Below, in pieces: positions 38,189 through 56,414 of a stretch of 64,000 nt of DNA (position 1 is the stretch's first letter; every line of letters begins with the position of its first letter). Source of the DNA: Virgibacillus natechei. Its GTDB lineage: Bacteria > Bacillota > Bacilli > Bacillales > Amphibacillaceae. The position numbers were made by a program, and so were the translations under genes. Where the stretch lies: assembly GCF_026013645.1 (NCBI RefSeq), contig NZ_CP110224.1, positions 62,001 to 126,000 of the forward strand. Reading direction: 5' to 3'. The notes below the pieces were generated by a model, which saw only the letters and a program-made list of their open reading frames with translations, was not told the origin of the DNA and ran no database searches.

Positions 38189-39170
38189 ACAATTATTTTT
38201 CCAAATCTCGCTGTATTCCCATCACTCTATCCCTGGGCAAACCAGTAGATTCGGCAACAAGTTCAACTTCGATCCCATGTAATAAGAGTCGGCGGGCAGT
38301 TGCTTTTTTTGACTTCATTACTGCTTCCTTTTTTATTTGACTTATTTTTTTCTCTTTTTGCCTTATTTCTTCCTTACCACGTTCTATCTCTTGTGCAAGC
38401 AAATCCATATCACGTTGGAAAGATTCCTCATCCATAATACGTTTCAAACGCGATTCATAAGCAAGTTTTTGTTCCTGCGTCATGCTTAACTCTTCCCAAT
38501 TCTGGAAGGCTTCACGCAATGATTCGTCTTTCATGGCTATCTCCTCCAGTTCCGCATAAATGTCGTCATAGATTTTCTTGTTCCTGTGATCAACCATGCC
38601 AAGCATCAAGAGCCATCTGGCCAAAACACTATTCCATGGATCCAATTTGTCGTCTTTCCAAGCTTGTATTAATTTCCCCATTTCTATAAAGTGGTATTCC
38701 ATCATATCCGTCAGCTCAAATTGCTCTTCATCCTCGTACAAATGATAGGAGGTATGGAAGCGCTCTGTTTGTTTAAAAAGGTCAAAATTAAGAATGTTAA
38801 TCGCAATGACCGGGCGCAATTGTTTATAGGACATCCCTTTTCCAAGCGGGTTTAGATAGGCCCTGGACCAGTAGAAGATAGAGCGGTTAATCATATCGTA
38901 TTTATTCCCAAATTGCATTTCTACATTAATCCATTCATCAGCATCCGTAACCACCATTAAATCTAATCTTGACTCCTTATCATCAACATATTCCCCACCT
39001 AATTCCGTATTCGCAAATGAAATATCTTTGATCCGGCTTCTGCCTGTTTTTTGAAGAATTGCGTTTAAAAATACGACCGTGATGGCTTTATTCTTTTCAT
39101 TCCCAAAGAGTTGTTTAAATGATGACAATAGGTAAAGCTTTGAAGTTATCTCCGCTTTTTCCCCTGTCCC

Positions 39171-42695: not shown

Positions 42696-44508
42696 TTTGA
42701 TCCAACCCTATACCATTAACCCTTTTTCGTGCTTGGGAACCAATGGAATTTTGCTGCTGATTGAGTGCTTGAATTTCCCGGGCGAGCTCCTGTAATGTTT
42801 GTTGGATAAAGCGACCATTGCTTTGATGGGTTGCTTCGGTTATCCGACGTAATTCCTTAAATTCGTTTCGCATCCCTTCATTTGTTTCATTCACGTATTG
42901 TCCAAATCCTTGAGCTACCTTATCCAGTTTGTTTCCAAGGTTTCCTTCCAGCGTGGCAACATAATTGGTGAGTGTATCCTTTAGAACGCCTACACTTGCC
43001 TCAAGCTGATTCTCCCGCTGATTGAATGTGTGATTCATTTGAGCAATCGTCCCGTTCATCTCATTGATGAGCTGGTTATTTTTCATCCCTACCTGTTCAT
43101 AGGTTCTGGAAGCCTCCTGTATATGCTTCTCAAATGCCATTGATTCAGAGGAATGGGCTTTTAGATGGTTATTAAATGTTCGATTAAATTCCTTCAATTC
43201 ATTAAAACGATCGGATAACAGATGCTTATATTCGGCCTGTGTTTGATTGATAACGTCAAGGGCATCAGGAAGCTTGCCAATTGAATCACCCATTTTATCA
43301 AAATCCCCCGAAAGCTCACTCAAATATGTCATGATTCCTGCGAGTTTTCCAGTAAGATCGTCCCCAAAAATCTGTTTGAACTCCTTATTATGTGCCTCCA
43401 TCCGATCCACAAGGTCACTGCTTTTTCCATGTATTTTCTCAAATGCAGCTTGTATGGATTCTTGCCCTTCCACAATGGAGGAGGTGAATTGTTTGATATC
43501 CACCACCGAATCCTCGAATTGATTTAGAGTCTCCAGTTGCGTATTTGAGACTTCCTTCACTTTTTCATAAGTATTTTCAAAAGCCTGCGTCATTCGCTCA
43601 TTTCGTCCGTCCATCTTTTTGAAATAGGAAAATAGACTATCAAAGTTCTTATTTAGCTTTGTTGTACCTTCTCCAAATCCGTCCGTCACTTCCTTCATAC
43701 TTCGGAAAAGCTCCTGAAATTCCCCTAGGTTATCAGAAAGTCCCTCATTAAATGCAGCCAAGTCCTTAGCCGATTGCTGGAGCCCTGTCGTATATTCCTG
43801 AAATCCCGTAAACGCAGATTCTATTCCCTGTAGAGATTGCTGATTCGTTTCCTGCAGGCTGAGAATGGATTGATTAATTGTTTCCGACACCTCAATCATC
43901 CGGCTGAGTCCATTTTGCTCCGTTCCTTCCAGATTGGATTCGGTCATCAGCATAATATCTGTCAGCATCAATTCCGTGTTGAGCATTCTAATGAGAACCG
44001 TCATGATCAACGAGAAACTCATACCCACTATACTTGTGTAAAAAGCAACATCAATCCCTGACAGAACGCCAGCTACTCCTGCAACTAAATCACTATCGTC
44101 TAAATTAATACTATTTAAGGATGATGTCAGCCCAATAAACGTCCCCAATACACCAATCAGGATAAAAACAGAGACCGTCATCTGGATCATTTTAATTAGA
44201 CTGACAACAGGCACATTGAAAACACGCCAACTCGAAAACTTCTCCTGCACGAAGGTTTCCGCCTTTACCGCTTCTTGTTTCTTTTCAAATTGTTCCTTAA
44301 AAGAAGATAGTGGATCGATATCCATTCGATTTGTGTCTTTTAAGTAATTCCTTATTTTTTTCAATTTATTAAATAGGACAATATGAACCAGAATCGCGAT
44401 CACGAAAGCGGTAAATAAAAAGATAAAAATGCCCTCAATCATTGGATTGGCCAACATCGCCTCCGCTTTTTGCTCACTTGTAAACATCTCCAGAATTGAT
44501 TGCACCAT
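42685..44508 (-). CDS. zorA: ZorA-like MotA/TolQ/ExbB channel protein with long coiled-coil tail
   Basis: 607 residues. Three membrane helices at about 24-46, 107-130 and 152-176; helix 2 contains GVLGTFIGLTSSL and helix 3 AFYTSIVGMSFSL, the proton-channel motifs of MotA/ExbB. Residues about 200-590 are a long cytoplasmic coiled-coil rod, the hallmark of ZorA, whose tail relays phage sensing. The gene precedes zorB with an overlap. ZorC, ZorD, ZorE or other effectors are absent within several kilobases on either side. Confidence 0.8.
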   Translation of the reverse strand: MVQSILEMFTSEQKAEAMLANPMIEGIFIFLFTAFVIAILVHIVLFNKLKKIRNYLKDTNRMDIDPLSSFKEQFEKKQEAVKAETFVQEKFSSWRVFNVPVVSLIKMIQMTVSVFILIGVLGTFIGLTSSLNSINLDDSDLVAGVAGVLSGIDVAFYTSIVGMSFSLIMTVLIRMLNTELMLTDIMLMTESNLEGTEQNGLSRMIEVSETINQSILSLQETNQQSLQGIESAFTGFQEYTTGLQQSAKDLAAFNEGLSDNLGEFQELFRSMKEVTDGFGEGTTKLNKNFDSLFSYFKKMDGRNERMTQAFENTYEKVKEVSNTQLETLNQFEDSVVDIKQFTSSIVEGQESIQAAFEKIHGKSSDLVDRMEAHNKEFKQIFGDDLTGKLAGIMTYLSELSGDFDKMGDSIGKLPDALDVINQTQAEYKHLLSDRFNELKEFNRTFNNHLKAHSSESMAFEKHIQEASRTYEQVGMKNNQLINEMNGTIAQMNHTFNQRENQLEASVGVLKDTLTNYVATLEGNLGNKLDKVAQGFGQYVNETNEGMRNEFKELRRITEATHQSNGRFIQQTLQELAREIQALNQQQNSIGSQARKRVNGIGLDQNEY

Positions 44509-45103
44509 TCGTTTTCCCCCTACCGGAAAGCTTTTTTTACAGCGTTACACATCGTATACGGAGGTAACCAGATTTGCAGCCCTCTCTTACTATTGCTATT
44601 CGGGGGTTGGACGATTCATGTGTACAAGGTGGATAGATATTGAATAATATCGGTGGAAGGTTATTTGGAAAGCGGATATTATAAAAAATCAGGATCTTTG
44701 CTTTATCATTGCTGTTAATTTAGTGATCTATTCTTATAGTTACTTTGTAGAGTTTGAGTTTGCAATAGACATGTTAAGCGGTAGGTAGTTGATGTTCCAC
44801 TGCCTCTAGAAATTTAATATTCACTTTATCTAGTAAGAGCTGTTACTTTCCTAATAAGGAGGTGAAAGGTGTTAAAAGACAAAAGCCAAAAAATGAAGGA
44901 TTTTAACTAACTCTAAAAATTTACGAAAAATTAAAAGGGAGGATATATAAATCCAATGACATTATTGGCATTCATTTTCTGTAATGTTCCTGCTCAGGCA
45001 CATCAACTACAAAATGATTATTCTATTTTCCTTCTATAATTTCCTCAGAGGTTTGTACAAGCATGAACGGATTACAGAAAAAATTAAAAAAAGAGCGAAC
45101 CTA
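44509..45103. other. Non-coding spacer between zorA and the amidase module
   Basis: About 600 bases, A/T-rich. The only candidate coding item is a 13-codon ORF at 44869-44910 (GTG start, AAGGAGGTGAAAG upstream, peptide MLKDKSQKMKDFN), which could be a leader peptide or chance. No RNA gene or transposase remnant is recognised. Confidence 0.5.
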
Positions 45104-45136
45104 TTTGATTTTATTCATTCAACTTCTCTTTCTTAG
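45104..45136 (+). promoter_or_regulatory. Island promoter motif upstream of amidase 1
   Basis: TTGA (45104-45107), 17 bases, CTCTTT (45125-45130). TTGATTTTA at the -35 position and the CTCTTT box match five other sites in this island. It lies about 70 bases before the amidase start. Confidence 0.55.
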
Positions 45137-45202
45137 GATGTGAGACATCAAACGAGTAAGACGGTTTGAGGCTGAAACATAAAATAAAAGGAGATGAATG
45201 GT

Positions 45203-47437
45203 TTGGTACAACTACAAAACACATTAAGACCAGGCGATGAAGGGCAGGCGGTAAGAGATCTTCAGCAAGCACTGGTAGAACACAATTTTTATCCAGACAT
45301 CGATTCACCGAATAATGGCGTCGATGGCATCTATGGACCGGATACAGAAGACGCTGTACGCCGGTTTCAGATTATAAACGGTCTACAAGTAGATGGTATC
45401 GCGGGCTCTGAAACGCGTAATGCATTAGGTATTGGTGGCGGTTCCGGTGGAGGAACTGGAGGGGGCTCTGGCACTACACTACGAACAGGTCATTCAGGAG
45501 AGCGTGTGCGAGGATTGCAGCAGGCGCTAGTTGATGCTGGGTACTATCCGAATATTAATGCTTCTAACAATGGGATCGACGGTATCTACGGCGCAAATAC
45601 TCAAGACGCGGTTCGGCGTTATCAAATTATGCATGGTTTACAAGTGGACGGGATTGCCGGGCCAGAAACATTAGCGTCACTTGGTTTAAGTGGCGGTTCC
45701 GGACAGGTATTGCGTCTGGGCGACGAAGGTGAAGCCGTACGCCAGTTACAACAGGCCCTTGTAGACAACAACTTCTACCCTGACATTAACGCACCAAATA
45801 ATGGGGTGGACGGCATCTATGGTCCCAATACTGAAGACGCGGTACGCCGTTACCAAACGATAAACGGCTTAATGGTTGATGGCATTGCAGGTCCAGATAC
45901 CCTTTCATCGTTAGGTATTAGCGATGGCGGATCAGGAGGAGGCGGTAATGACGGTGGCTCAGGAAATCCAGGTAATCTTCGCAGAGGCGACCAGGGTGAA
46001 GCTGTTCGTGTTTTGCAACAAGCCTTAGTTGATAACAATTTCTATCCAAACATTAACGCCGCGAATAATGGTGTGGATGGACACTACGGCGCTAATACAG
46101 AAGATGCTGTTCGTCGCTTCCAAATCATAAATGGTTTAACGGTCGACGGGATAGCTGGATCCGAAACGCTGAATGCTTTAAGTATTAGTGCAGGCACAGG
46201 TGACCCCGGTGACGGATCAGGAGGAGGCGGTGGCCCTGCTACTGGCGGTGATATTTCTGGTATGAAAAAGGTTGAACGCCTTGTTCCTCGTTCCAACTAT
46301 AACCGCCCAGAGTATGCAATGAATCCAGACTATATTACGATTCATGAAACAGCAAACACAGCACCGAGCGCGACTGCTTCTATGCATGCAAGCTTTGTTC
46401 GCAATTCGTCCACACAAGTTTCATGGCACTTTACTGTTGATGATTCCGACACATACTATCAACATCTGCCGCTAAACGAAAGTGGATTCCATGCAGGTGA
46501 TGGCAGTGGGGATGGAAACCGAAATAGCATTGGCATTGAACTGTGCGTAAATACTGGTGGGGACTTTTCTAGAACTAGGCAGACAGCTGCAGCACTTGTT
46601 AGACAGTTAATGCATGACTTAAACATTCCGATTGAAAATGTCGTCACGCATAATCACTGGAGCGGTAAACTGTGCCCAGCAAATCTCTTAAATATCTTTG
46701 ATGAATTCAAAGATCAGGTGATGAATTCAACAGTCCACGACGACGGGAACCCAGGGGAGCTCCCAGAAGATGGGGGAGTGATTGAATATGGAACCTTTAA
46801 ATATACTTCTCCTTTTATTGATTTAGAGTCAGAGCATCGTATGCGAGAAGAGGGGTATACATTTGGTTTTAATGTGGTCGCAGACGTTGAGCTAGGACCC
46901 GTTTCAGGAGAAATGTCCGTCACGATTGGGTTCGGTGACCCTGATGACTCTCTATTTGATGTAGGAGAGACTTGGAGATTGACTGAGAATGAGTTGGGAA
47001 CAGAGATAACCGCAGCAATTACAGACATTGCAGAGTTTTTTGGAGTTCCTGGTTCGTCTGAATACAATCAAGCCAGAGATACCCTTAATGACATCCTTAG
47101 TGAAGATATAAACGACATTGTGGAAGTGCGTGTGCAACCACCATCAAACCCGCAATTTAGCTCTTCTTGGCCATTTTTCACCTTTGATTTGTTTACCATA
47201 GAGGTAATGCGAAAACTTGAAGACGATGGCGTCTTTGTAGTAGAAAAAATGGTTATTCAAGATGTGGATTGGAACAATGACGATAATTTTAAAAGGTATG
47301 CCACAGTCGTTGTTCTTGTTCTACTAGCTGCAATTCTATTAAAAGGTAGCTGGTTAGCAGTATTTATTGGGAATGTTTTAAGACAAATTGCTGGCTGGTT
47401 TGGTCGAAACTTACCAGGGATGCCGGCCCCGATTTAA
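45203..47437 (+). CDS. Large peptidoglycan amidase with four PG-binding repeats and C-terminal membrane segment
   Basis: 744 residues from TTG 45203 (AAAGGAG nine bases upstream; ATG 45194 abuts that site). Four PG_binding_1 repeats of about 75-85 residues (each with NFYPDI-like, NNGVDGIYG and DAVRRFQ) are separated by Gly/Ser linkers. An Amidase_2 domain (about 355-505) has IHETAN, SWHFTVDD, GFHAGDGSGDGNRNS and HNHWSGKLCP with the zinc His and Cys. A 180-residue unique domain follows, then a hydrophobic helix near 695-720. No N-terminal signal peptide is present, so export by the Sec route is unlikely. Confidence 0.88.
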   Translation: MVQLQNTLRPGDEGQAVRDLQQALVEHNFYPDIDSPNNGVDGIYGPDTEDAVRRFQIINGLQVDGIAGSETRNALGIGGGSGGGTGGGSGTTLRTGHSGERVRGLQQALVDAGYYPNINASNNGIDGIYGANTQDAVRRYQIMHGLQVDGIAGPETLASLGLSGGSGQVLRLGDEGEAVRQLQQALVDNNFYPDINAPNNGVDGIYGPNTEDAVRRYQTINGLMVDGIAGPDTLSSLGISDGGSGGGGNDGGSGNPGNLRRGDQGEAVRVLQQALVDNNFYPNINAANNGVDGHYGANTEDAVRRFQIINGLTVDGIAGSETLNALSISAGTGDPGDGSGGGGGPATGGDISGMKKVERLVPRSNYNRPEYAMNPDYITIHETANTAPSATASMHASFVRNSSTQVSWHFTVDDSDTYYQHLPLNESGFHAGDGSGDGNRNSIGIELCVNTGGDFSRTRQTAAALVRQLMHDLNIPIENVVTHNHWSGKLCPANLLNIFDEFKDQVMNSTVHDDGNPGELPEDGGVIEYGTFKYTSPFIDLESEHRMREEGYTFGFNVVADVELGPVSGEMSVTIGFGDPDDSLFDVGETWRLTENELGTEITAAITDIAEFFGVPGSSEYNQARDTLNDILSEDINDIVEVRVQPPSNPQFSSSWPFFTFDLFTIEVMRKLEDDGVFVVEKMVIQDVDWNNDDNFKRYATVVVLVLLAAILLKGSWLAVFIGNVLRQIAGWFGRNLPGMPAPI

Positions 47438-47443
47438 GCTCTT

Positions 47444-47480
47444 AAAAAAAGGAAGTTGGCAATTTGCAACTTCCTTTTTT
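47444..47480 (+). terminator. Terminator after amidase 1
   Basis: AAAAAAAGGAAGTTG pairs with CAACTTCCTTTTTT around GCAATTTG; a T-run follows. Confidence 0.9.
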
Positions 47481-47547
47481 CTTTTAAATTTATTTTAATT
47501 TTGATAGAATAAGGGTTCGTTAAACTGTGTAAGGAGGTTTAGATTTT

Positions 47548-48129
47548 ATGAAAAGCTACATAACGTTAGCAAGCTTGGTTGTATTAATCTTTGCAGGCTG
47601 CTCAAATGAAGGAACTGAAGAAACGAATAATTTAGACATAAAAGACGTTGAAGAAGCTAGGAGTGAAGAACCAGACTTGGCATTTCCTATTGAGCTAGCG
47701 AGGTTTGAAGTGGGGGAAGAGCTTCGTTTTGAAGAGATCTTATTTGACTTTGATGAAGCCACATTCGTAAACGGGTATTTTAAGGATTCCTTTCTTGAAG
47801 AAGATGTGGGAGACGAAGAATTGGATTTTATAGGGTTTGAAGTAGATGCTTCAGGTTTTGAGGAAAGTGGAAACGATATTCATTTTGAGTCAGACCAATT
47901 TGAGCTTACGATTAATAATGATGAATCTTATCCTCTCCGCGATGGCTTCAATTCCATGCCTGTCATTAGAGGGAATGAAGAGGTAGTTTTGTATTTCGAT
48001 GTGACGGACTTTATCGAATCGAATGAGTATGAAGAAATAGTCACAATAAAGTTACATATTGAAGCGCCGATTGATCCTAAAACGGATGAACGAATTGGCA
48101 AGGATGCATCGGTGGAAATTGAGGTTTAA
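47548..48129 (+). CDS. Lipoprotein, unknown, very acidic
   Basis: 193 residues. The N-terminal signal with lipobox IFAGC places the lipid-modified Cys at about 19. The mature part is strongly acidic (EEARSEEPDLAFP) and beta-rich, a telokin/DUF4352-like immunoglobulin pattern being possible (VGEELRFEEILFDFDEA, EEVVLYFDVTDF). AAGGAGG precedes the ATG. It follows amidase 1 and is followed by a membrane protein gene, probably on one transcript. Confidence 0.7.
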   Translation: MKSYITLASLVVLIFAGCSNEGTEETNNLDIKDVEEARSEEPDLAFPIELARFEVGEELRFEEILFDFDEATFVNGYFKDSFLEEDVGDEELDFIGFEVDASGFEESGNDIHFESDQFELTINNDESYPLRDGFNSMPVIRGNEEVVLYFDVTDFIESNEYEEIVTIKLHIEAPIDPKTDERIGKDASVEIEV

Positions 48130-48158
48130 CAATCGCTTATTGAGAGGAGGGACTCTAA

Positions 48159-48755
48159 TTGAATTCTGTCTTTCTTGTACAGGATAGTTGGGTGATCACG
48201 ATGCTTTCGGTTTATATCCTCGCACTGACCCTCTATCTATGTATAATTTATTTACAAAAAATCGATTTTTATTCTCTTAAGGGAGGAAAAGTTAAGAAGC
48301 CTCAAAATCGCCGGCCGGTTTCTCTACTATTTCAAGTCCATGTCATTCCCCTTCTAATTGGTGCGCTGCAATTCTTTAGCGAGGGTCTAGAAAACTGGTT
48401 GTCTACAGTGGTTCATTTCGTTGTTTTAAGTACTTATATTATTTTGTTCATCGCTATTGTTAAACATATTTTTTACATTTTGGCGTACAAACGAAACGCC
48501 TATACAGACGTTTGGTCCATCGATATTGGTCAGTCTAAGGTTTATTATATACTTGCTATTATCGTGTTTCCTTTTTCTTTTTTCTTTGAATGGAGTGTTC
48601 TTACGTGGCTTCCGCTTGTTTTTCTCATCTATGGATTTATAACTAAAGTTGGGGCTGAGGACGCCCTCAAGGCAAACGAGCAGCGTGCGTACATGGAGAG
48701 GTTAGAAGAAGAGAATAAGCAGCTCAGAAAACAGTTAAGTCAAAATGAAGACTGA
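48159..48755 (+). CDS. Multi-pass membrane protein with C-terminal coiled coil
   Basis: 198 residues from TTG 48159, with GAGGAGGG upstream. About five hydrophobic segments (around 12-32, 57-72, 84-105, 127-144, 147-163) and a charged, helical C-terminus (AYMERLEEENKQLRKQL). No family recognised. It lies downstream of the lipoprotein gene and shares a terminator with the convergent RsoA-like gene. Confidence 0.65.
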   Translation: MNSVFLVQDSWVITMLSVYILALTLYLCIIYLQKIDFYSLKGGKVKKPQNRRPVSLLFQVHVIPLLIGALQFFSEGLENWLSTVVHFVVLSTYIILFIAIVKHIFYILAYKRNAYTDVWSIDIGQSKVYYILAIIVFPFSFFFEWSVLTWLPLVFLIYGFITKVGAEDALKANEQRAYMERLEEENKQLRKQLSQNED

Positions 48756-48765
48756 ATTAGTTAAA

Positions 48766-48805
48766 AGAAACAAGCATCTACTAAAAAGCAGATGCTTGTT
48801 TCTTA
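48766..48805. terminator. Bidirectional terminator between membrane protein and RsoA-like gene 1
   Basis: AAGAAACAAGCATCT (48766-48780) pairs with AGATGCTTGTTTCTT (48791-48805), a perfect 15-bp stem with a ten-base loop. It serves two convergent transcripts. Confidence 0.9.
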
Positions 48806-49009
48806 TTTGTCAAAGTTAATTAACCCTAGAAATTCAATTAGCCCAGGAGCCTCTAAGTTTTGGATGACCGGCATCTTTTCGTAAAGCTTTAGTTTCAGTT
48901 CTTGTTCCAGTTCTTCTCGCTTTTGATAGTCGGTTTGGTTCAACGACTTTTTAATCTTAGGTTTAAACTTTGTAAGTAGTGTGTGGTAGTCGTAATCAAT
49001 GGTGTTCAT
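48803..49009 (-). CDS. RsoA-like sigma co-factor 1 (HTH_16-type)
   Basis: 68 residues. The pattern FKPKIKKSLNQTDYQKREELEQELKLKL followed by PGLIEFLGLI is shared with two other small proteins in this island and fits the small helix-turn-helix_16 proteins such as RsoA (YvrHa) of B. subtilis, which supplies a region-2-like half of a two-subunit sigma factor with SigO. It lies seven bases after the sigma-like gene, so the pair is co-transcribed. Confidence 0.7.
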   Translation of the reverse strand: MNTIDYDYHTLLTKFKPKIKKSLNQTDYQKREELEQELKLKLYEKMPVIQNLEAPGLIEFLGLINFDK

Positions 49010-49016
49010 GTTAATG

Positions 49017-49595
49017 TTATCCCTCCAATGCTGCTCGTAGTTGTTTTAGTGCACTTTTTCGGTGATAGGAGACCATTTGCTCAGAAAGGTTCAAGGCTTG
49101 AGCTATTTCTTTGTTCATCAAGCCACTTACAATTGAGTAAGTGAGTACATCTTTTTGTTCGGGTCGAAGTTTTTTAAATGCCTTCGCTACGCATTCATTC
49201 TCAATCAAATCTTCTAAAGGTACTGTTTTTTCAAGCGCTGACTCAAAAATTTCTTCTACGTCTCCGTCCTTTAATGCATCTTTGAGCGTGACGGTCTCGT
49301 CCTCGGAGTCGTTAATGGGCCTATCTAAAGACAGGGAAGCCCCTTCTTTTTTTGAGCGTTTATCATAATCTTGAGCAAAACCCTTGATTAAGTTGCTTAT
49401 ATAAAGGACTTTCTTTTTTTCTTTAAAGTACCGTTTGAATGCTCTATCTAATTTTTGAATATTAGTATCATAAGGGTCGTTAAGTGCTTGAATAAAGAGA
49501 CGATAGTTGTCGCTGTCTTTGTAAAAATTGACTAACAATGGATCGTCGCTCGTATTCTTGATTTTTTCAACTGTGTTCATTAGTTCTCTATTCAT
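49017..49595 (-). CDS. SigO-like sigma factor subunit 1
   Basis: 192 residues. A C-terminal region 4 helix-turn-helix is clear: LRPEQKDVLTYSIVSGLMNKEIAQALNLSEQMVSYHRKSALKQL. The N-terminal part lacks an intact region 2 core but has aromatic helices (RAFKRYFKEKKKVLYISNLI). That split agrees with SigO (YvrI)/RsoA of B. subtilis, where a separate small protein completes the sigma factor. The partner gene is immediately downstream. The promoter upstream carries the same motif as other island genes, suggesting self-activation. Confidence 0.75.
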   Translation of the reverse strand: MNRELMNTVEKIKNTSDDPLLVNFYKDSDNYRLFIQALNDPYDTNIQKLDRAFKRYFKEKKKVLYISNLIKGFAQDYDKRSKKEGASLSLDRPINDSEDETVTLKDALKDGDVEEIFESALEKTVPLEDLIENECVAKAFKKLRPEQKDVLTYSIVSGLMNKEIAQALNLSEQMVSYHRKSALKQLRAALEG

Positions 49596-49627
49596 TGATC
49601 CACACTCCAGATTACCGTTTTCCTATT

Positions 49628-49655
49628 AAAGAGACCAAAAGAAAGAAAAGATCAA
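49628..49655 (-). promoter_or_regulatory. Island promoter motif upstream of SigO-like gene 1
   Basis: Minus strand: TTGA (49655-49652), 18 bases, CTCTTT (49633-49628) followed by AATA. It lies 33 bases before the sigma gene start. Confidence 0.6.
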
Positions 49656-49727
49656 AATGCGAACATAAGTTCTTTAAATAAATTTATCACAGTATGCCAA
49701 CTCGAACAAGAAAAAACCAATAAGAAA

Positions 49728-50192
49728 TTATTGGTTTTTTTCTTGAGAGGGCTTACCTCCATCTTCTTGCCCTTTTCGTTGTTCAGCTTTTAGGGAATCG
49801 GCTGGGTCATACCGATCCTTTAATAGGTTCATCGTTTTTTTCATGACATTAGGCACATAGACGCCTGCATCGCGCAAGTTTTCCAGAATTGACACGGCTT
49901 CATTAATCAGATAGGCCCAAATGACCAGAGTTCGGAGCGGAATATCAAATAGAGGATCGTTTGTAGTAATGAGCAGATGGTCGATTGCATGAGCCATCAA
50001 GACCACGAGGATAACAGAGAATTTACGAAGAATCCCAGCCCATCCGAACCGACTCGATAAGCTTTGGTTTTTAATGGAGCGAATCATGCTGATACAATAG
50101 TCGATAATCATAAAGAGCACTAAATATTGAAAAAGCATGCCAAAACTCCCAAGCAGATGGTTTAGTTGAAAGAACGTTAAAAAGGAATCCAT
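49728..50192 (-). CDS. TcdE/phage_holin_4-family holin
   Basis: 154 residues. The family pattern is clear: GWAGILRKFSVILVVLMAHAIDHLL, then an RTLVIWAYLINEAVSILENL helix with the conserved NE..S..EN, then GVYVPNVMKK and a charged tail (AEQRKGQEDGGKPSQ). Three to four membrane helices. Members include phage holins and TcdE, which releases the leaderless toxins of C. difficile. Here it lies between two leaderless amidase genes and upstream of a sigma gene, with the shared motif in front. Confidence 0.88.
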   Translation of the reverse strand: MDSFLTFFQLNHLLGSFGMLFQYLVLFMIIDYCISMIRSIKNQSLSSRFGWAGILRKFSVILVVLMAHAIDHLLITTNDPLFDIPLRTLVIWAYLINEAVSILENLRDAGVYVPNVMKKTMNLLKDRYDPADSLKAEQRKGQEDGGKPSQEKNQ

Positions 50193-50226
50193 TAAACTGC
50201 CTCCTTAGATGTGGAAGTTTTTATCT

Positions 50227-50254
50227 AAAGAGAAATAGAGCTGAAAAAAATCAA
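50227..50254 (-). promoter_or_regulatory. Island promoter motif upstream of the holin gene
   Basis: Minus strand: TTGATTTTTTT (from 50254), CTCTTT (50232-50227) after 18 bases, followed by AGATAA. It lies 35 bases before the holin start. Between here and 50577 there is one 61-codon ORF (50374-50559) without a ribosome site, not called. Confidence 0.6.
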
Positions 50255-50577
50255 ATGAAAGGAGGGGAATGGTGTTTAGGAAGAATGTGGGTAATAGTTA
50301 TCACGTTTTTCAGGGCCTTAATCGGGCATTGGGAGCTTGACAGAGTGAATACAAGGGTGACATCCGAAAAGAATTGAAAGAACATAGTTGGGGGAATTTC
50401 ATCTTATGGCTTGATACATGTGAGAAAACGCTGGATGATTCGAAGAGAATAGAGAAGGTTGGAGAGTATCGCTCGTACATAGGGCAGTATGCAGAAATTT
50501 ATGTGCCACTATTGCTGGTGAAGGCTGTAATGCTGCAAAAGAAAGCTTTTGTTAAATGACAGGACTAAGGAGGAATA

Positions 50578-50727
50578 ATGAACCTTATAGCCTACAAAGA
50601 TTCGACTGGAACACCGACAAAATTTGATTTATTTTTCTTTAAATGCCTCCACTTACTGACTTTGAAACGTTCTAACTGGGTGGAAAAACAAATTCGACAG
50701 ATAAATAAAGATAAAACAGAGGAATAA
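50578..50727 (+). CDS. 49-residue protein, unknown
   Basis: ATG 50578 follows AAGGAGG with ideal spacing. The peptide (MNLIAYKDSTGTPTKFDLFF onward) is basic at the C-terminus (VEKQIRQINKDKTEE) with a hydrophobic middle (FFKCLHLLTL). No family recognised. The following 270 bases contain no other gene. Confidence 0.5.
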   Translation: MNLIAYKDSTGTPTKFDLFFFKCLHLLTLKRSNWVEKQIRQINKDKTEE

Positions 50728-50997
50728 GAATAAAACTATATATTAAGTTAGATTTAAAGGAGCTGGTTCAAGAAGGTTTTTAGAGTTAACTTCCTTTTTT
50801 ATTGCTGGAAAATCTGTCATGGTATATCTATTTGTAGAATTGATGCGAATGCTTTATCCTACCTAACTACTGAAATTACAAGTTAAAAAAACAGTATGAA
50901 GAACTATTTACACCTCACACTGCTTTTATTCTTCATTTGGTTTTTGTTTAGAATATAAAAGGTCGCGTTTAGGCACTAATTTGTCTTCCCTACATTT

Positions 50998-51213
50998 TTA
51001 ATTGTTTTCCTGTATAAATTCCCAAAACCCTGGACTGTACCTACATTCAAACATCTGAAGTTTTTCAATTTTGATAGCTAATTCCTGTTCTAAATTCTCA
51101 CGTTCCTGATAAGTCGTGTTTGTGATACTACTCTTTATTCTTGGGGTTAACTCCTTAATTATTTTCTTTACCTCCTCATTTTCCAATCGTTCTCTACAGT
51201 TTGAATCTTGCAC
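50998..51213 (-). CDS. Orphan RsoA-like protein (copy 3)
   Basis: 71 residues from GTG 51213, without a good ribosome site. TPRIKSSITNTTYQERENLEQELAIKI and SPGFWEFIQ match the core shared with the two other RsoA-like proteins nearby. No sigma-like partner gene sits next to it; a DUF4352 fragment lies just beyond. It is probably the relic of a third module, or a third subunit exchanging with the two sigma proteins. Confidence 0.55.
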   Translation of the reverse strand: MQDSNCRERLENEEVKKIIKELTPRIKSSITNTTYQERENLEQELAIKIEKLQMFECRYSPGFWEFIQENN

Positions 51214-51282
51214 TCGGAAGGCATTTTTTCTTTACACCTCTTCTAATAATTCTTCTCTCTCTCTTATTTCTATTTCCCTACT

Positions 51283-51600
51283 GGTATAGCTGGGGATCAA
51301 GTGAAATTTATACAAATGGATGCGACACTTCAGAATACAACTGATGATCCAATGCAATTCTTCTTTGCTTCCACAACGCTTCAACTGAACGGTGCGCAGT
51401 TAGTTGCGCAGGATATGTTTAGTGGAGAAGCCAATGGTAATTTTGATACACAGACACCGAGAAACACCACGTTAGTGTATATGCTGAGTGATGAGAATTT
51501 GACTGCGGAAGATATAAACGACCTGACTGTTCAGATCACGGGTGTTCCGATGAATCTGAAAAAGGAAGAAGAAACTGTACAGGTGCTTTCTTTGAGGTAG
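51283..51600 (+). pseudogene. C-terminal fragment of a DUF4352/telokin-like lipoprotein gene
   Basis: From GTG 51301 the frame encodes 99 residues (FIQMDATLQNTTDDPMQFFF, then a QMFSGEANGNFDTQTPRNTT-like stretch and a C-terminal strand pattern) typical of the DUF4352 immunoglobulin-like domain of secreted lipoproteins. It continues upstream in frame (GIAGDQ) without a start codon, signal peptide or ribosome site, so the 5' part is lost. Confidence 0.5.
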
Positions 51601-51637
51601 GAATTGAGCGATGAAATCAGGAATATTTAACAATGAA

Positions 51638-51670
51638 CCAAGGGACATAAGTACTTGTCCCTTGGTTTTT
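51638..51670. terminator. Terminator between DUF4352 fragment and RsoA-like gene 2
   Basis: CCAAGGGACA (51638-51647) pairs perfectly with TGTCCCTTGG (51656-51665), followed by TTTTT on the plus strand. Confidence 0.8.
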
Positions 51671-51715
51671 ACTCATCCTATAGAAATCCGGTATTGCTCG
51701 CTACCTGACATCACT

Positions 51716-51964
51716 TTATTCTTCTTCTCTATCCCCTTTGGATACATCCTGTACATTTAATTTTTTCTTTTGCTCTTCTTTAATAAAATCGTAAAATCCA
51801 GGCACATCCTCATATTTAACATTATCAGCAGATTTAATAATCTTTTCCATTAAATCTTGCTTGACATCCTCACGATATTTCTCGGGAATAGAATTAATAC
51901 TCTTTCTAATTTTTGGTTCAACTTTCTTTATAAGTTCTTGATGCAACTCTTCATATCTTCTCAA
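51716..51964 (-). CDS. RsoA-like sigma co-factor 2 (HTH_16-type)
   Basis: 82 residues. VEPKIRKSINSIPEKYREDVKQDLMEKI and VPGFYDFIKEEQ align with the RsoA-like protein at 48803-49009. The start overlaps the stop of the sigma-like gene by four bases (ATGA), so the two proteins should be made in equal amounts, as expected for two halves of one sigma factor. The C-terminus has an extra Lys/Asp-rich tail. Confidence 0.7.
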   Translation of the reverse strand: MRRYEELHQELIKKVEPKIRKSINSIPEKYREDVKQDLMEKIIKSADNVKYEDVPGFYDFIKEEQKKKLNVQDVSKGDREEE

Positions 51965-52554
51965 GATGCCACCTCCAGCTTGTTTTTTAAAGATTTTATT
52001 GCCCGTTTATGGATTCTGGAAATGTTTTGGTCACTATCACCGAAAACATCTGCAATTTCTTTATTTCCTAAACCCTCCGCATATAACAAGTTAAGAACCT
52101 TTAGCTGTTTAGTAGAAAGTGACAAGAGGGCTTTATAAAGGTTTTTGTCCGTTGTGCAGTCTAGAAGTCCCAAATGATTCTCTAATTTATCTTCCGGAGT
52201 GTGAATATTTTCATCTGTAGTTAAATCTATTAATCCAACGCTTTCGTCTTCTTCTGTCGTAAAATCATCTAAAATAAAAAGGTTTCGCTTATGGAACCTT
52301 GAATACCTTTCCTTCATCTCAATGGTGTAAAAACGAATTAATTTGGTCGTATAATTGAACAATTTTACTTTATAGAAATGTTCTTTAAATGCTTCATCCA
52401 AGTGTCTTTTGTTGGCAATGCCTTCCTCTTCATATGCAGAGATTAGAAGAGAGATATTTTTATCAGAACTAAAAAAGTGATGCATTACCGAGTTTTCCAA
52501 AATATAGAGATCACCAGGAAAATAGTCTTCAATATAATTACCTGTCATTTCCAT
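51961..52554 (-). CDS. SigO-like sigma factor subunit 2
   Basis: 197 residues from ATG 52554 (AAGGGGG eight bases upstream; GTG 52563 overlaps that site). The C-terminal region 4 helix-turn-helix is LSTKQLKVLNLLYAEGLGNKEIADVFGDSDQNISRIHKRAIKSL. The N-terminal part aligns loosely with sigma-like protein 1 (HLDEAFKEHFYKVKLFNYTTKL versus KLDRAFKRYFKEKKKVLYIS). It forms an operon with RsoA-like gene 2 and lies just downstream of a YvrJ homologue, the same gene company as sigO in B. subtilis. Confidence 0.75.
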   Translation of the reverse strand: MEMTGNYIEDYFPGDLYILENSVMHHFFSSDKNISLLISAYEEEGIANKRHLDEAFKEHFYKVKLFNYTTKLIRFYTIEMKERYSRFHKRNLFILDDFTTEEDESVGLIDLTTDENIHTPEDKLENHLGLLDCTTDKNLYKALLSLSTKQLKVLNLLYAEGLGNKEIADVFGDSDQNISRIHKRAIKSLKNKLEVAS

Positions 52555-52577
52555 TGTTAACACCCCCTTATATTATT

Positions 52578-52605
52578 AAAGAGACATATGTTTGCATAAA
52601 ATAAA
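52578..52605 (-). promoter_or_regulatory. Island promoter motif upstream of SigO-like gene 2
   Basis: Minus strand: TTTA (52605-52602) in place of TTGA, 18 bases, CTCTTT (52583-52578), then AATAATA. It lies 24 bases before the sigma gene start. Confidence 0.5.
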
Positions 52606-52620
52606 CTTCTTCAAGAAAAA

Positions 52621-52656
52621 AATAGAACATACATTCCTTAGAATGTGTGTTCTATT
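52621..52656 (-). terminator. Terminator after the YvrJ-like gene
   Basis: A 16-pair stem (52621-52636 with 52641-52656, one G-T pair, loop CTTA) is followed on the minus strand by seven T residues. It separates yvrJ from the sigma operon. Confidence 0.85.
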
Positions 52657-52712
52657 ATGTAGATTGACTATCTCGATGTCTATTTTTTCTTTGTTCCACT
52701 TTATGGTAATTA

Positions 52713-52883
52713 TTACTTATTCTTATCTTTTATTAATATTTTTTCAATTGTTCTTGCCATTGAATTAACCCTATCAGAAAGTTCTCCTATTTTCTGTTCA
52801 AATCGAACAAGCAAGTAGATAGATACGAGAATAGGAAACCCAAAATTACCTAATAACATTGCAATTTCATTCGCATGTTCCAT
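52713..52883 (-). CDS. YvrJ-family small membrane protein
   Basis: 56 residues, start 52883 with GGAGGGG upstream. One hydrophobic helix (LLGNFGFPILVSIYLLVRFE) followed by KIGELSDRVNSMARTIEKI is the YvrJ pattern. In B. subtilis yvrJ lies beside the sigO (yvrI) and rsoA (yvrHa) genes. It has its own island-type promoter motif and terminator. Role unknown; similar size and topology to holin-like or anchor peptides. Confidence 0.75.
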   Translation of the reverse strand: MEHANEIAMLLGNFGFPILVSIYLLVRFEQKIGELSDRVNSMARTIEKILIKDKNK

Positions 52884-52907
52884 ATGACCCCTCCTTTCCT
52901 ATTATCT

Positions 52908-52935
52908 AAAGAGGATTCGAGTTAATCCTATTCAA
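52908..52935 (-). promoter_or_regulatory. Island promoter motif upstream of yvrJ-like gene
   Basis: Minus strand: TTGA (52935-52932), 18 bases, CTCTTT (52913-52908), then AGATAA. It lies 25 bases before the gene start. The rest of 52936-53118 is A/T-rich without a visible gene. Confidence 0.6.
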
Positions 52936-53118
52936 CTATCAAATTTTTACATTGGAGTTGATTTTTACTTCATATATCCCTCTTTTATAGTCAACTGATG
53001 AAAAAGGGTGGTGAGGAAATGGACTTGATTTCTATGATTTCTAATTCGCAAACATATTGATAAGGATAGGGAGATCTGCCGAAGAAAAGAGGATTGCTTA
53101 AAAAATTTATCAAAATGG

Positions 53119-53150
53119 TTGATTTTTTAGTATACTTTTTCCTCTTTTAT
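53119..53150 (+). promoter_or_regulatory. Island promoter motif upstream of amidase 2
   Basis: TTGATTTTTT (from 53119), 19 bases after TTGA, CTCTTT (53142-53147), then TAT. It lies about 100 bases before the amidase start. Confidence 0.5.
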
Positions 53151-53250
53151 AAAGTGAAAGATGCTCCACCTATTAAGGAACGAGAGGATTCTTAATTCTT
53201 TCTATTTGAAACAGGTGGATATAAAAAATAGTATAAGGAGATGGACAATT

Positions 53251-55419
53251 ATGAGCACAGGAAGAGTTTTACGTTTAACAAGTCCTTACATGCAAGGAGA
53301 AGATGTTCGAGAGCTGCAACAAGCATTGGTAGATAATAACTTTTATCCGGATGTAAATGCTTCAGACTATGGAGTAGATGGAGTTTATGGTCCAGATACC
53401 GAAGATGCGGTACGCCGTTACCAAACTGTTCAAGGATTAGAAGTAGACGGTATAGCAGGCCAGGCAACATTGGCATCTCTCGGGGTTAGCAGTGGAGGAA
53501 CTGGCGGCACTGGAGGAAATGTATTACAACGAGGAGATTCTGGATCAGCAGTACGAGAGTTGCAACAAGCACTGGTAGATAATAATTTCTATCCGGATGT
53601 AAACGCCTCAGACAATGGAGTAGACGGGGTTTATGGTCCAGATACTGAGGATGCAGTACGCCGTTATCAAACCATTCAAGGACTAGAAGTAGATGGAATA
53701 GCAGGTCCAGCGACATTGGGATCACTTGGTTTAAGCAGCGGTGGAACAGGAGGCACCGGTGGCTCAGGAGGAAGTGTTTTGCAACGAGGAGATTCCGGTT
53801 CAGCAGTACGAGAGCTGCAACAAGCATTGGTAGATAATAATTTTTACCCGGATGTAAACGCCTCTGACAATGGGGTAGACGGAGTTTATGGTCCAGATAC
53901 CGAAGATGCGGTACGCCGTTATCAAACCATTGAAGGACTAGAAGTAGATGGCATCGCTGGCCCAGAGACATTGGGATCACTTGGTTTAAGCAGCGGTGGC
54001 ACAGGAGGAAACGTATTACAACGAGGAGATTCGGGTTCAGCAGTCCGAGAGTTGCAGCAAGCATTGGTAGATAATAATTTCTATCCGGATGTAAATGCCT
54101 CTGACAATGGAGTAGATGGAGTTTATGGTCCAGATACCGAAGATGCGGTACGCCGTTACCAAACCATAGAAGGGTTAGAAGTAGATGGAATCGCTGGCCC
54201 AGAGACGTTGGGATCACTTGGTTTAAGCAACAGCGGAGGAACCGGTGGAACTGGAGGCACTGGTGGCTCAGACGGTGGTTACAGTATTGGTGGTGACATG
54301 GGTCATCTAACTGTAGTAAATGATATTATTCCACGTTTTAATGGTAACCGTCCAAGTATTATCATGACTCCACAGTATATTACGATTCATGAGACGGCTA
54401 ATACGGATGTTGGAGCAAATGCTGCTATGCATGCTAATTATGTAAAACAACCAGGGACAGCAGTTTCGTGGCATTTTACGGTAGATGATGGAAATAGGAT
54501 TTATCAACATCTCCCAACGTATGAGACTGGGTATCATGCAGGAGATGGAAGTGGAGATGGAAATCGCAATAGTATTGGAATTGAACTATGTGTAAACAGT
54601 GATGGATACTTCTTGGAAACCAGACGAAATGCAGCGGCATTAGTTAAGAAATTAATGACGGACTTTGCAATTCCAATTTCTAATGTAGTTCCGCATAACC
54701 ATTGGAGTGGGAAAAACTGCCCTGCTAATTTACTAAGTGTCTTTGATGACTTTCTGGCTCAAGTTGAGAATTCCTCTTATGAGGAGCCTGAAGTATACAG
54801 CCCGGACTCCGTCTTTACAGATAAAAACCCTTTCTTATCACCGGATACCCCTGAATACGATTATGACATTACAGTAGGAGGACTAACCGGGACTCTGACC
54901 GGAACTCTGGTTTTAGACGGTGACGTTCCATGGACAATTGCAGAAGAAGGAGAGAATGGTGAAAGTAAAGTTCTGCATAGTCATGAGTTGGATGATGGCA
55001 TGGATAAGATGCTAAATATAATGAAAGAACACTATGGATTGAATGAATATGGGAGTATTCAGGAGGCGCGGACTGAAATTGAAGGGATACTTGGTGAAGT
55101 GATGGATCGTCTAGAGGAGGTGCGTATTGATTACTTTACTGATTTTGAAGCTACGTGGGATCCGCCTTTTCTTAACACAACTTATATAAAGATGGAAATT
55201 CTCTATTTTATTCCGGGTTCGGATGCAAAACTTTTGGAAACTGTTTCTTTAGATGAAATAGATTATGATAATAATAGGAATAGGGGTAGGCCGCAAACTG
55301 GGTTAGTTTTGGTGTTGGTTTTGCTCGCGGTATTCGCGCTTGTGGCATTAGGGTTAACGATGGGCAGTATTATAGCTGCAATTATAGCGTTGTTATTTGG
55401 TTCATCCGCAGCAAGCTAA
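53251..55419 (+). CDS. Large peptidoglycan amidase 2 with four near-identical PG-binding repeats
   Basis: 722 residues from ATG 53251 (AAGGAG upstream). Four repeats with RELQQALVDNNFYPDVNAS, GVDGVYGPDTEDAVRRYQ and GLEVDGIAG, at DNA spacing 255, 255 and 237 bp, joined by GGTGG linkers. Amidase_2 follows at about 365-515 (IHETAN, SWHFTVDDGN, YHAGDGSGDGNRNS, HNHWSGKNCP). A unique domain and a strongly hydrophobic C-terminus (GLVLVLVLLAVFALVALGL and IIAAIIALLFG) end the protein. No signal peptide. It is a paralogue of the amidase at 45203-47437. Confidence 0.9.
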   Translation: MSTGRVLRLTSPYMQGEDVRELQQALVDNNFYPDVNASDYGVDGVYGPDTEDAVRRYQTVQGLEVDGIAGQATLASLGVSSGGTGGTGGNVLQRGDSGSAVRELQQALVDNNFYPDVNASDNGVDGVYGPDTEDAVRRYQTIQGLEVDGIAGPATLGSLGLSSGGTGGTGGSGGSVLQRGDSGSAVRELQQALVDNNFYPDVNASDNGVDGVYGPDTEDAVRRYQTIEGLEVDGIAGPETLGSLGLSSGGTGGNVLQRGDSGSAVRELQQALVDNNFYPDVNASDNGVDGVYGPDTEDAVRRYQTIEGLEVDGIAGPETLGSLGLSNSGGTGGTGGTGGSDGGYSIGGDMGHLTVVNDIIPRFNGNRPSIIMTPQYITIHETANTDVGANAAMHANYVKQPGTAVSWHFTVDDGNRIYQHLPTYETGYHAGDGSGDGNRNSIGIELCVNSDGYFLETRRNAAALVKKLMTDFAIPISNVVPHNHWSGKNCPANLLSVFDDFLAQVENSSYEEPEVYSPDSVFTDKNPFLSPDTPEYDYDITVGGLTGTLTGTLVLDGDVPWTIAEEGENGESKVLHSHELDDGMDKMLNIMKEHYGLNEYGSIQEARTEIEGILGEVMDRLEEVRIDYFTDFEATWDPPFLNTTYIKMEILYFIPGSDAKLLETVSLDEIDYDNNRNRGRPQTGLVLVLVLLAVFALVALGLTMGSIIAAIIALLFGSSAAS

Positions 55420-55466
55420 GTAACCTGGTTAGAAGCTAATGAATTAGTCATCTCCCTTAATATTAT

Positions 55467-55493
55467 GGAGCTGTCTTCACCGAAGACAGCTCC
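55467..55493. terminator. Hairpin between amidase 2 and the convergent membrane protein gene
   Basis: GGAGCTGTCTTC (55467-55478) pairs perfectly with GAAGACAGCTCC (55482-55493), loop ACC. T-runs are weak on both sides but position suggests a shared transcription stop. Confidence 0.65.
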
Positions 55494-55521
55494 AGTAATG
55501 AAATCATCAATTAAATTATGT

Positions 55522-56070
55522 TTATTTAGTGTTTGGCAAATTAAATCTCCATGAATTAGCAAAATGGCCTAACCCACCTAGTAAAAACGAAATAAGGGCT
55601 AATAAATAATTAATATCTGAGGTCGCAAAATATAACAACCCTAAAAACACACCAATTACACCACAAAGTAAAGAAGCTTTTCTCCATATTTTATGGATAC
55701 TTTCTCCATCATTTAATAATAAAAAAGCGGCTATTAATAACGAAGAAGCTGAACTAAATTCGTTGAGTGATAAGATAATAATAAGGATGACAATGAGTCT
55801 ATGAAGGGAGGGTTCCTCCGGTAAAGTTTGCTCTGTAATCACCATGCAAAGGAATATACACACCACTGCCACAAAGGTTGCAAGTATAGGTACTAACTTT
55901 TTCTCTCTAATGAACAGGGTGCGTTTGTGTGCTTTTTTTAAAATCTGGATGTCTGGGATACTAGCACTTTTATATTTTATGACAATGAATATGCTTACTT
56001 GGACAAAAATGAGGCAAAACGCCAGGAGTCCTGCAGCTAATATAGCGTTCCCCCATAAAAGGTCAATCAT
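55522..56070 (-). CDS. Multi-pass membrane protein, unknown
   Basis: 182 residues with about six hydrophobic segments (around 8-32, 60-78, 88-104, 106-120, 132-150, 153-172) and a basic loop KKAHKRTLFIREKK. GGAGG precedes the ATG. No family recognised and no conserved polar residues in the helices that would suggest transport. It converges on amidase 2 and lacks the island promoter motif. Confidence 0.6.
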   Translation of the reverse strand: MIDLLWGNAILAAGLLAFCLIFVQVSIFIVIKYKSASIPDIQILKKAHKRTLFIREKKLVPILATFVAVVCIFLCMVITEQTLPEEPSLHRLIVILIIILSLNEFSSASSLLIAAFLLLNDGESIHKIWRKASLLCGVIGVFLGLLYFATSDINYLLALISFLLGGLGHFANSWRFNLPNTK

Positions 56071-56414
56071 GAATAGTCCTCCTTTTTGATTTTAATAGTT
56101 AATATATAATCTGAGTGACAACAAAGAAATCAGCTTTAATCATCCTAACATAAAATTATTTAATTATGTCGATTGCCTGTATCTATAAATCGAATATCGT
56201 TAATATCGTATTTTCTTTGAATAGGAAAATAAGTAAAGAAAATGCTGAAAAAGAGTATGATAATTGCTTGAAAAAGCAATTACTTTCCCAATATACAAAT
56301 TATTTATTCTATGATAAGTTTATTATAAGAAAGTTTAATAAATTACAAAAGTAGGATAGCTTAGGAAGACAATTAAAATAGTAGTTTATTAATAATGAAA
56401 AGAGAGGTTTATCA
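56071..56414. other. A/T-rich spacer without a supported gene
   Basis: One 62-codon ORF (56166-56354) has no ribosome site and unusual composition, so I do not call it. A ribosome site (AAGAGAGG) for the following gene lies at 56399-56406. Confidence 0.5.

What the first reader, a model, noticed from the sequence alone, without database searches (positions are those of the whole stretch)
45104..55419. Candidate self-regulated, holin-dependent wall-hydrolase release island
Seen: two amidases of over 700 residues with four PG-binding repeats each, no signal peptide and a C-terminal membrane segment; between them a TcdE-family holin gene, a YvrJ-like gene, and two operons encoding a SigO-like sigma protein with an RsoA-like small partner. 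No phage structural gene is present. Known: SigO/RsoA is a two-subunit sigma factor of B. subtilis, and TcdE-type holins release leaderless proteins such as C. difficile toxins, whose locus also has a dedicated sigma factor. Inference: the split sigma factors switch on holin and amidases so that the enzymes leave without Sec, for wall remodelling, controlled lysis or attack on neighbours. I know of no described system with this exact gene set.
Basis: partly seen in the sequence, partly recalled or inferred. Interest (0 to 1): 0.85.

Follow-up and report, generated by a model that had tools for sequence, protein, structure and literature searches.

The report
DNA-damage switch releasing wall-cutting enzymes
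A small gene island in a bacillus-type bacterium appears to be switched on by DNA damage through a split transcription factor and then to make membrane-hole proteins and large cell-wall-cutting enzymes, much like a bacteriocin release system; the DNA-damage switch recurs beside this split factor in many related genera.

Summary
Two leaderless amidases with four wall-binding repeats and a hydrophobic C-terminus, a TcdE-type holin, a YvrJ gene and two SigO/RsoA pairs are present. Both sigma operons carry LexA (SOS) boxes, one perfect, one near-consensus. Of 96 sigO genes examined across the order, 72 (32 of 41 genera) have a perfect GAACNNNNGTTC upstream, against 26 of 1434 other ORFs. A second motif, TTGA-N17-19-CTCTTT, stands before both amidases, the holin, yvrJ and sigO1: 7 of 74 genome copies lie in these 8 kb. 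The amidases' C-terminal domain is rare (8 of 397 genomes), also sits on a glycosidase-like scaffold, and has lipoprotein or membrane-protein genes downstream. Best reading: DNA damage induces SigO/RsoA, which switches on holin, YvrJ and wall-piercing, membrane-active lysins; the neighbours are candidate immunity genes. The logic resembles clostridial Bcn5/UviA/UviB with unrelated parts. Killing and immunity are inferred. YvrJ, not the TcdE holin, is the usual partner. Most SigO loci (58 of 94) have no identified cargo nearby.

The parts
45105..45131 (+). promoter-like motif TTGA-N17-CTCTTT before amidase A
45194..47437 (+). amidase A: 4 PG-binding repeats, Amidase_2, C-terminal domain (46709-47434) ending in a hydrophobic stretch; probable start TTG 45203
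47548..48129 (+). lipoprotein (lipobox by reading), candidate immunity protein for amidase A
   Evidence: its only relatives in 102 loci lie directly downstream of the C-domain amidases of L073 and L104; a fourth lies downstream of L328's
48159..48755 (+). multi-pass membrane protein, function unknown
   Evidence: (no family over cut-off)
48803..49009 (-). RsoA-like 1
   Evidence: NF041489 55.4 bits (cut-off 100)
49017..49595 (-). SigO-like 1 (sigma region 4)
49628..49655 (-). promoter-like motif before sigO1
49661..49672 (.). perfect LexA/SOS box GAACATAAGTTC upstream of sigO1
49728..50192 (-). TcdE-family holin
50227..50254 (-). promoter-like motif before holin
50998..51213 (-). third, lone RsoA-like gene without a sigO partner
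   Evidence: 67.9 bits, best of the three
51301..51600 (+). short ORF clustering with the lipoprotein L022:14005-14994; probable gene remnant
   Evidence: cluster c165
51716..51964 (-). RsoA-like 2
   Evidence: 36.3 bits
51961..52563 (-). SigO-like 2
52577..52605 (-). variant promoter-like motif before sigO2
52625..52636 (.). near-consensus LexA box GAACATACATTC (1 mismatch)
   Evidence: compare the one-mismatch boxes near recA and lexA
52641..52652 (.). near-consensus LexA box GAATGTGTGTTC (1 mismatch)
   Evidence: compare
52713..52883 (-). YvrJ-family small protein with one hydrophobic segment, holin-like
52908..52935 (-). promoter-like motif before yvrJ
52958..52985 (+). promoter-like motif, 33 bp before a 13-codon ORF at 53019-53060 that looks like a yvrJ start
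53086..53113 (-). promoter-like motif
53119..53147 (+). promoter-like motif before amidase B
53251..55419 (+). amidase B: 4 PG-binding repeats, Amidase_2, C-terminal domain homologous to that of A (54754-55416)
55522..56070 (-). multi-pass membrane protein; a relative with a disrupted frame lies in the L022 island

Best explanation
A DNA-damage-triggered lysis/bacteriocin-type module. LexA represses the two sigO-rsoA operons. SOS induction makes the split sigma factor, which amplifies itself and transcribes holin, yvrJ and both amidases from a shared promoter type. Holin and/or YvrJ let the leaderless amidases out, by lysis of part of the population or by non-lytic passage. Outside, the PG-binding repeats and amidase domain attack walls and the hydrophobic C-terminal domain reaches and damages the membrane. 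The lipoprotein 47548-48129 and membrane proteins such as 55522-56070 protect producing kin. Shown: gene content, motifs, conservation of the SOS box at sigO, co-location, the C-domain on two scaffolds. Inferred: promoter use, export, killing, immunity.
For: SOS: 72 of 96 sigO ORFs have GAACNNNNGTTC between 300 bp upstream and 60 bp inside the ORF start, against 26 of 1434 other ORFs of 140 aa or more; 32 of 41 genera; nine other half-site words or spacings 0 to 1 of 96. Of six further named loci with SigO on contigs not in that set (L205, L207, L217, L223, L226, L234), five have it within 300 bp; L205's is at 308. sigO1 has a perfect box, sigO2 two one-mismatch boxes; the box 109 bp upstream of recA and one 376 bp upstream of lexA in this genome are also one-mismatch. 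Shared promoter: 7 of 74 genome matches in 8 kb, Poisson P about 2e-10, post hoc; the same motif lies before yvrJ or sigO in other genera, and before yvrJ and the amidase in L022/L168. The C-domain is in 8 of 397 genomes (9 genes): 8 of 9 beside SigO+RsoA, the ninth directly downstream of a TcdE-type holin (TIGR01593 99.6 bits) and a weakly sigma/ArpU-like gene. It sits on two wall-hydrolase scaffolds, Amidase_2 and Rv2525c-type glycosidase-like (L149, L327). Lipoproteins of one family lie downstream in four loci, three-segment membrane proteins of another in three, the latter across both scaffolds. In the fetched flanks of the 80 best phage amidase relatives no C-domain, RsoA or YvrJ was found.
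Against: 58 of 94 SigO loci have no wall hydrolase cluster, S8 protease or oxdC within 3 kb. The six oxdC loci (the B. subtilis-type arrangement) have no SOS box. The lipoprotein and membrane-protein families also occur alone elsewhere: 104 and 22 of 397 genomes have a match, many weak; 20 such regions inspected hold no C-domain, RsoA or YvrJ, and only two PG-binding-repeat ORFs and one weak SigO match some kilobases away. Seven of the nine C-domain genes were seeds of the profile or already known from RsoA neighbourhoods. The AlphaFold model of the C-domain is poor (mean pLDDT 52.9) and no PDB match was significant, so membrane attack rests on hydropathy alone. The strict promoter motif is near sigO in only 16 of the 93 other SigO loci and was derived from the window. 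No expression or activity data.
Confidence: 0.58

Rival explanations
1. Altruistic or programmed lysis only: the SOS-controlled split sigma factor drives holin/YvrJ plus amidases to burst damaged cells (phage exclusion, DNA release). The C-terminal domain only anchors the enzyme to the cell's own membrane and the downstream genes are unrelated.
For: SOS boxes at sigO. Simpler loci of the same family have yvrJ plus a small amidase without a hydrophobic tail: L095, L105, L110 in the first set, and 8 of the 80 named amidase loci (two of these, L199 and L194, are the contigs of L095 and L110; L207's ORF is cut short), a lysis cassette with no toxin-like part.
Against: The rare C-domain occurs on two hydrolase scaffolds and is followed by recurring lipoprotein/membrane-protein genes. 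L328 has four lipoprotein genes and two small membrane-protein genes around the amidase. Two large amidases are more than lysis needs.
Confidence: 0.24
2. One reading: a non-lytic, holin-dependent secretion route for wall-remodelling enzymes, controlled by SigO/RsoA alone.
For: Leaderless enzymes, TcdE-family holin, self-directed motif; holin-dependent export of leaderless clostridial toxins is described (PMC9527704, section 6 and passages seen).
Against: SOS boxes point to damage-induced expression. A relative of this holin is in only 3 of 102 SigO loci. Two congeneric genomes show no full-length amidase match in the listed hits and no C-domain, unlike a housekeeping remodeller.
Confidence: 0.1
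3. Prophage remnant: a leftover lysis region whose regulators happen to sit nearby.
For: Amidase domains and holin are closest to phage lysis families; a reverse transcriptase, a transposase and gene remnants lie around.
Against: The gene set recurs in several genera; in the fetched flanks of the 80 best phage amidase relatives no C-domain, RsoA or YvrJ was found, one has a weak SigO hit; no structural genes among the proteins scanned.
Confidence: 0.08

Closest known systems
Bcn5 / UviA / UviB bacteriocin locus of Clostridium perfringens (pIP404)
   Same: Dedicated sigma factor, small holin, amidase and a leaderless murein-cutting protein with wall-binding domains and a hydrophobic C-terminus (PMC9527704 section 6). 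UV inducibility is recalled, not read.
   Different: UviA belongs to the one-piece TcdR group of sigma factors, UviB is a BhlA holin, Bcn5 an M14-type peptidase with SH3b domains; here SigO/RsoA, TcdE holin plus YvrJ, Amidase_2 with PG_binding_1 repeats and a different C-domain.
TcdR / TcdE release system of Clostridioides difficile
   Same: Dedicated sigma factor plus a TcdE-family holin beside large leaderless proteins (passages of PMC9527704 and PMC4885068).
   Different: Cargo are wall hydrolases, not host-directed toxins; split sigma factor; SOS boxes on the sigma genes.
[quoted passage not shown]
   Same: Split sigma domains; yvrJ and sigO-rsoA are in its regulon (PMC8103513 passage).
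   Different: Known cargo is oxdC-yvrL; the six oxdC loci examined have no SOS box, most other SigO loci do.
SOS-induced colicins and megacin A-216 (recalled, not read here)
   Same: LexA-controlled bacteriocin, lysis or holin gene and immunity gene.
   Different: No sequence relation was tested.

Membership tests
SigO-RsoA split sigma factors | Separate sigma-4-like (SigO) and sigma-2-like (RsoA) genes in one operon | tested here: met
   two adjacent pairs on the same strand
SigO-RsoA split sigma factors | RsoA over the curated equivalog cut-off (100 bits) | tested here: not met
   67.9, 55.4, 36.3 bits; so relatives, not proven equivalents. Only 9 of 397 genomes pass
SigO-RsoA split sigma factors | yvrJ under the same promoter type | tested here: met
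   sequence motif only
LexA/SOS regulon | Conserved LexA box upstream of the regulator gene | tested here: met
LexA/SOS regulon | Induction by DNA damage | not testable with these tools
   needs a reporter or RNA-seq
TcdE-type holins | TIGR01593 / PF05105 over cut-off | tested here: met
Bcn5-family bacteriocins | M14-like murein peptidase domain with SH3b domains | tested here: not met
   Amidase_2 or Rv2525c glycosidase-like with PG_binding_1 instead; so it works like, but is not, Bcn5
Bcn5-family bacteriocins | No Sec signal peptide, hydrophobic C-terminal domain, sigma factor and holin alongside | tested here: met
Polymorphic toxin-immunity systems | Same C-domain on different N-terminal scaffolds, cognate protein gene downstream | tested here: inconclusive
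   two scaffolds and two recurring downstream families, but one main C-domain type and no activity test
Prophage lysis cassette | Set within phage structural/replication genes, or found in phages | tested here: not met
   (proteins and flanks scanned, not every ORF)

The most novel reading that the evidence does not exclude
SigO-RsoA split sigma factors across this order of bacilli are mainly an SOS-controlled lysis or release switch acting through the holin-like YvrJ protein. In this island the switch drives a new class of two-stage bacteriocins: wall-piercing lysins with exchangeable membrane-active C-terminal domains and matching lipoprotein or membrane immunity genes. The B. subtilis oxalate decarboxylase regulon would be a derived exception.
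Probability: 0.4. Interest if true: 0.88.

Novelty: new variant of a known kind. Interest (0 to 1): 0.74.

Why it matters
The two-subunit sigma factor of B. subtilis is, as far as I know, of unclear purpose beyond oxalate decarboxylase. A LexA box in front of its relatives in 32 of 41 genera examined gives a specific, easily tested trigger and links it to cell lysis and bacterial competition. It would also show that the clostridial recipe of sigma factor, holin and leaderless killer protein arose, or was rebuilt, with unrelated parts in bacilli, and offer a new set of anti-bacterial lysins with their own resistance genes.

Tried and rejected
The C-terminal domain of amidase A found no protein at E <= 0.01 in the large protein database (1503 candidates); the Halobacillus version found only a protein 100% identical to it, named as Halobacillus litoralis. 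Its AlphaFold model (A2, 5 sequences) is too weak for fold matching (best E 0.0085, TM 0.13-0.18); the second structure job was not used. A first idea that the window motif marks all SigO promoters was rejected: 8 of 99 sigO upstream regions had a relaxed form; other lineages use variants such as TCACTTTA. That the TcdE holin is the core partner was rejected (3 of 102 loci; a single-sequence search, so distant holins may be missed). Counting 4 of 4 named hydrophobic-tail amidases beside SigO/RsoA/YvrJ as independent support was rejected, because three of these are the same contigs as the alignment seeds and the fourth (L168) is G003's contig, already seen. That orphan copies of the lipoprotein/membrane-protein families mark further islands was not borne out: 20 regions chosen from the hits hold no C-domain, RsoA or YvrJ; L371 and L366 have an ORF related to the amidases' repeats and L369 a weak SigO match, each kilobases away. 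No Rfam family in 44500-56500. The immediate neighbours of the 58 cargo-less SigO loci were listed but not scanned for families. Literature: searches for SigO+RsoA (6 papers), YvrI+YvrHa (2), YvrJ+holin (0), UviA+sigma factor+SOS+bacteriocin+lysis (0), LexA+YvrI (3, listing only), YvrJ (4), megacin+Bacillus megaterium+SOS (4) and two broader ones showed me no statement of SOS control of SigO, but most listed papers were seen as listings only; papers outside that library were not seen. Opened: PMC10028694, PMC8103513 and PMC4885068 (passages), PMC9527704 (passages and section 6).

Full report
What is there. The island 45.1-56.1 kb holds two large amidases, a TcdE-type holin, a YvrJ gene, two sigO-rsoA pairs, a third lone rsoA, a lipoprotein gene and two further membrane-protein genes. 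The amidases are leaderless by hydropathy and end in a hydrophobic stretch. The C-terminal domains of A and B are homologous (phmmer E = 8e-7; alignment).

Promoters. Reading the upstream regions side by side shows a common TTGA-N17-19-CTCTTT. Genome-wide there are 74 copies (the reversed control pattern 49); 7 lie within the 8 kb from amidase A to amidase B. From the rest of the genome 0.14 would be expected, P about 2e-10, though the pattern was derived from some of these sites. As an outside check, in the 12 of 80 named amidase loci that have SigO, RsoA and YvrJ, 8 copies fall in 38 kb of module and 41 in 1.34 Mb elsewhere, a 7-fold rate; some of these 12 are the same contigs as earlier loci. 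In the RsoA neighbourhoods the rate near sigO is 3-fold (20 in 335 kb against 25 in 1.26 Mb), in 16 of 93 loci only, so the motif as written is lineage-specific.

SOS boxes. The same upstream regions show GAACNNNNGTTC, the recalled Bacillus LexA box. RsoA (NF041489) was found in 133 of 397 genomes of the order. Of these 102 loci, 94 contain a sigO ORF over 140 aa (96 ORFs); 8 loci were dropped for lack of one. 72 of 96 have the perfect box, against 26 of 1434 other ORFs; 94 boxes in 1.78 Mb against 21 to 27 in five Markov-random sets. By genus 32 of 41; nine control patterns of other half-sites or spacings give 0 or 1 of 96. The six oxdC loci, the known B. subtilis arrangement, have none (one checked as oxalate decarboxylase family). 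In the window sigO1 has a perfect box (one of 26 sites in the genome). sigO2 has two one-mismatch boxes; in this genome the box 109 bp upstream of recA and one 376 bp upstream of lexA are also one-mismatch.

Partners. Clustering of 2174 genes from these loci, without preset families, gave SigO, RsoA and YvrJ as the core. Within 3 kb of sigO: YvrJ in 74 of 94 loci, a wall hydrolase cluster in 18 (16 with an SOS box), a subtilase in 12, oxdC in 6, none of the last three in 58. Thus YvrJ is the regular partner and wall hydrolases are one recurring cargo. Relatives of the window's TcdE-type holin are rare there (3 of 102).

C-terminal domain. A profile of five copies (A2) found the domain in 8 of 397 order genomes (9 genes) and in 2 of 159 family genomes, one of them in two short pieces. 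Eight of the nine genes lie beside SigO and RsoA. Five of these eight were seeds of the profile and two more (L104, L149) were known from RsoA neighbourhoods; the new one is G242, whose RsoA the first search had missed (L327; RsoA only 20 bits to NF041489). The ninth, also new (L328), lies in a row with a TcdE-type holin (99.6 bits to TIGR01593) and a gene with weak sigma and ArpU matches, with a perfect SOS-type box 1.4 kb upstream of the latter and no RsoA. In L149 and L327 the domain sits on PG_binding_1 plus an Rv2525c glycosidase-like domain, not Amidase_2. In the fetched flanks of the 80 best phage relatives of the amidase no copy of the domain, RsoA or YvrJ was found; one has a weak SigO match and 19 a holin relative.

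Candidate immunity. The window lipoprotein has only two relatives (E <= 0.01) among 9621 ORFs of the 102 loci, and both lie directly downstream of a C-domain amidase (L073, L104). A fourth member lies downstream of L328's amidase, with three more lipoproteins of another family and two small membrane proteins. A membrane-protein family with three hydrophobic segments lies downstream in L126/L157 (three copies), L131/L156 and L327, that is, across both scaffolds. Amidase B and L149 have different membrane proteins downstream. Against this: both families occur elsewhere too (104 and 22 of 397 genomes, many weak matches), and 20 such regions hold no C-domain. So immunity is plausible, not shown.

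How it most likely works. Shown: gene content, motifs, conservation, co-location. Inferred: DNA damage removes LexA; SigO/RsoA forms, feeds back on its own genes and turns on holin, YvrJ and amidases; the membrane proteins open a path; the amidases reach their own or neighbouring walls; the C-domain attacks membranes; lipoprotein and membrane proteins protect kin. The closest described logic is Bcn5/UviA/UviB (PMC9527704, section 6 read), whose authors raise the possibility that the wall-cutting part lets the bacteriocin reach the target membrane. The parts here are different, so it works like that system without being a member.

Limits. The C-domain model is poor. No expression or activity data exist here. 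Statements on print cover only the searches listed in Tried and rejected.

Noticed in passing
window 42000-44508 (-): A ZorB-like (227 bits to a PADLOC ZorB1 model) and ZorA-like pair next to a reverse transcriptase (39225-41024) and a PD-(D/E)XK transposase (38193-39128); other Zorya genes were not sought beyond the eight proteins scanned.
   Followed up: partly
L060, L067, L076, L078, L090, L097, L098, L103, L112: Another recurring SigO cargo: a subtilase without an obvious signal peptide by reading (Pfam S8 checked in L097 and L103), beside a small glutaredoxin-like gene (Pfam checked in L060).
   Followed up: partly
L111, L117, L119: Compact sigO-rsoA-(PG-binding M15 peptidase)-(Amidase_3)-yvrJ cassette, a possible minimal SOS lysis operon; M15 checked in all three, Amidase_3 in L111.
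   Followed up: partly
L226 (Planococcus sp. SK3692, record titled as a plasmid): SigO/RsoA/YvrJ plus amidase with two SOS boxes on a contig labelled as plasmid.
   Followed up: no
L328 9412-14239: Amidase with the C-domain in a row with a TcdE-type holin and a weakly sigma/ArpU-like gene, near an HTH gene, with an SOS-type box and many lipoprotein genes; no RsoA found.
   Followed up: partly
window 53019-53060: 13-codon ORF with a ribosome-binding site and a SigO-like motif upstream, resembling a truncated yvrJ start.
   Followed up: no
G002:C1:3229671-3238374: Several large open frames (over 1000 aa) with matches to the PG-binding repeats in tandem in a congeneric genome; similar ones in G000 near 3.32 Mb.
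   Followed up: no
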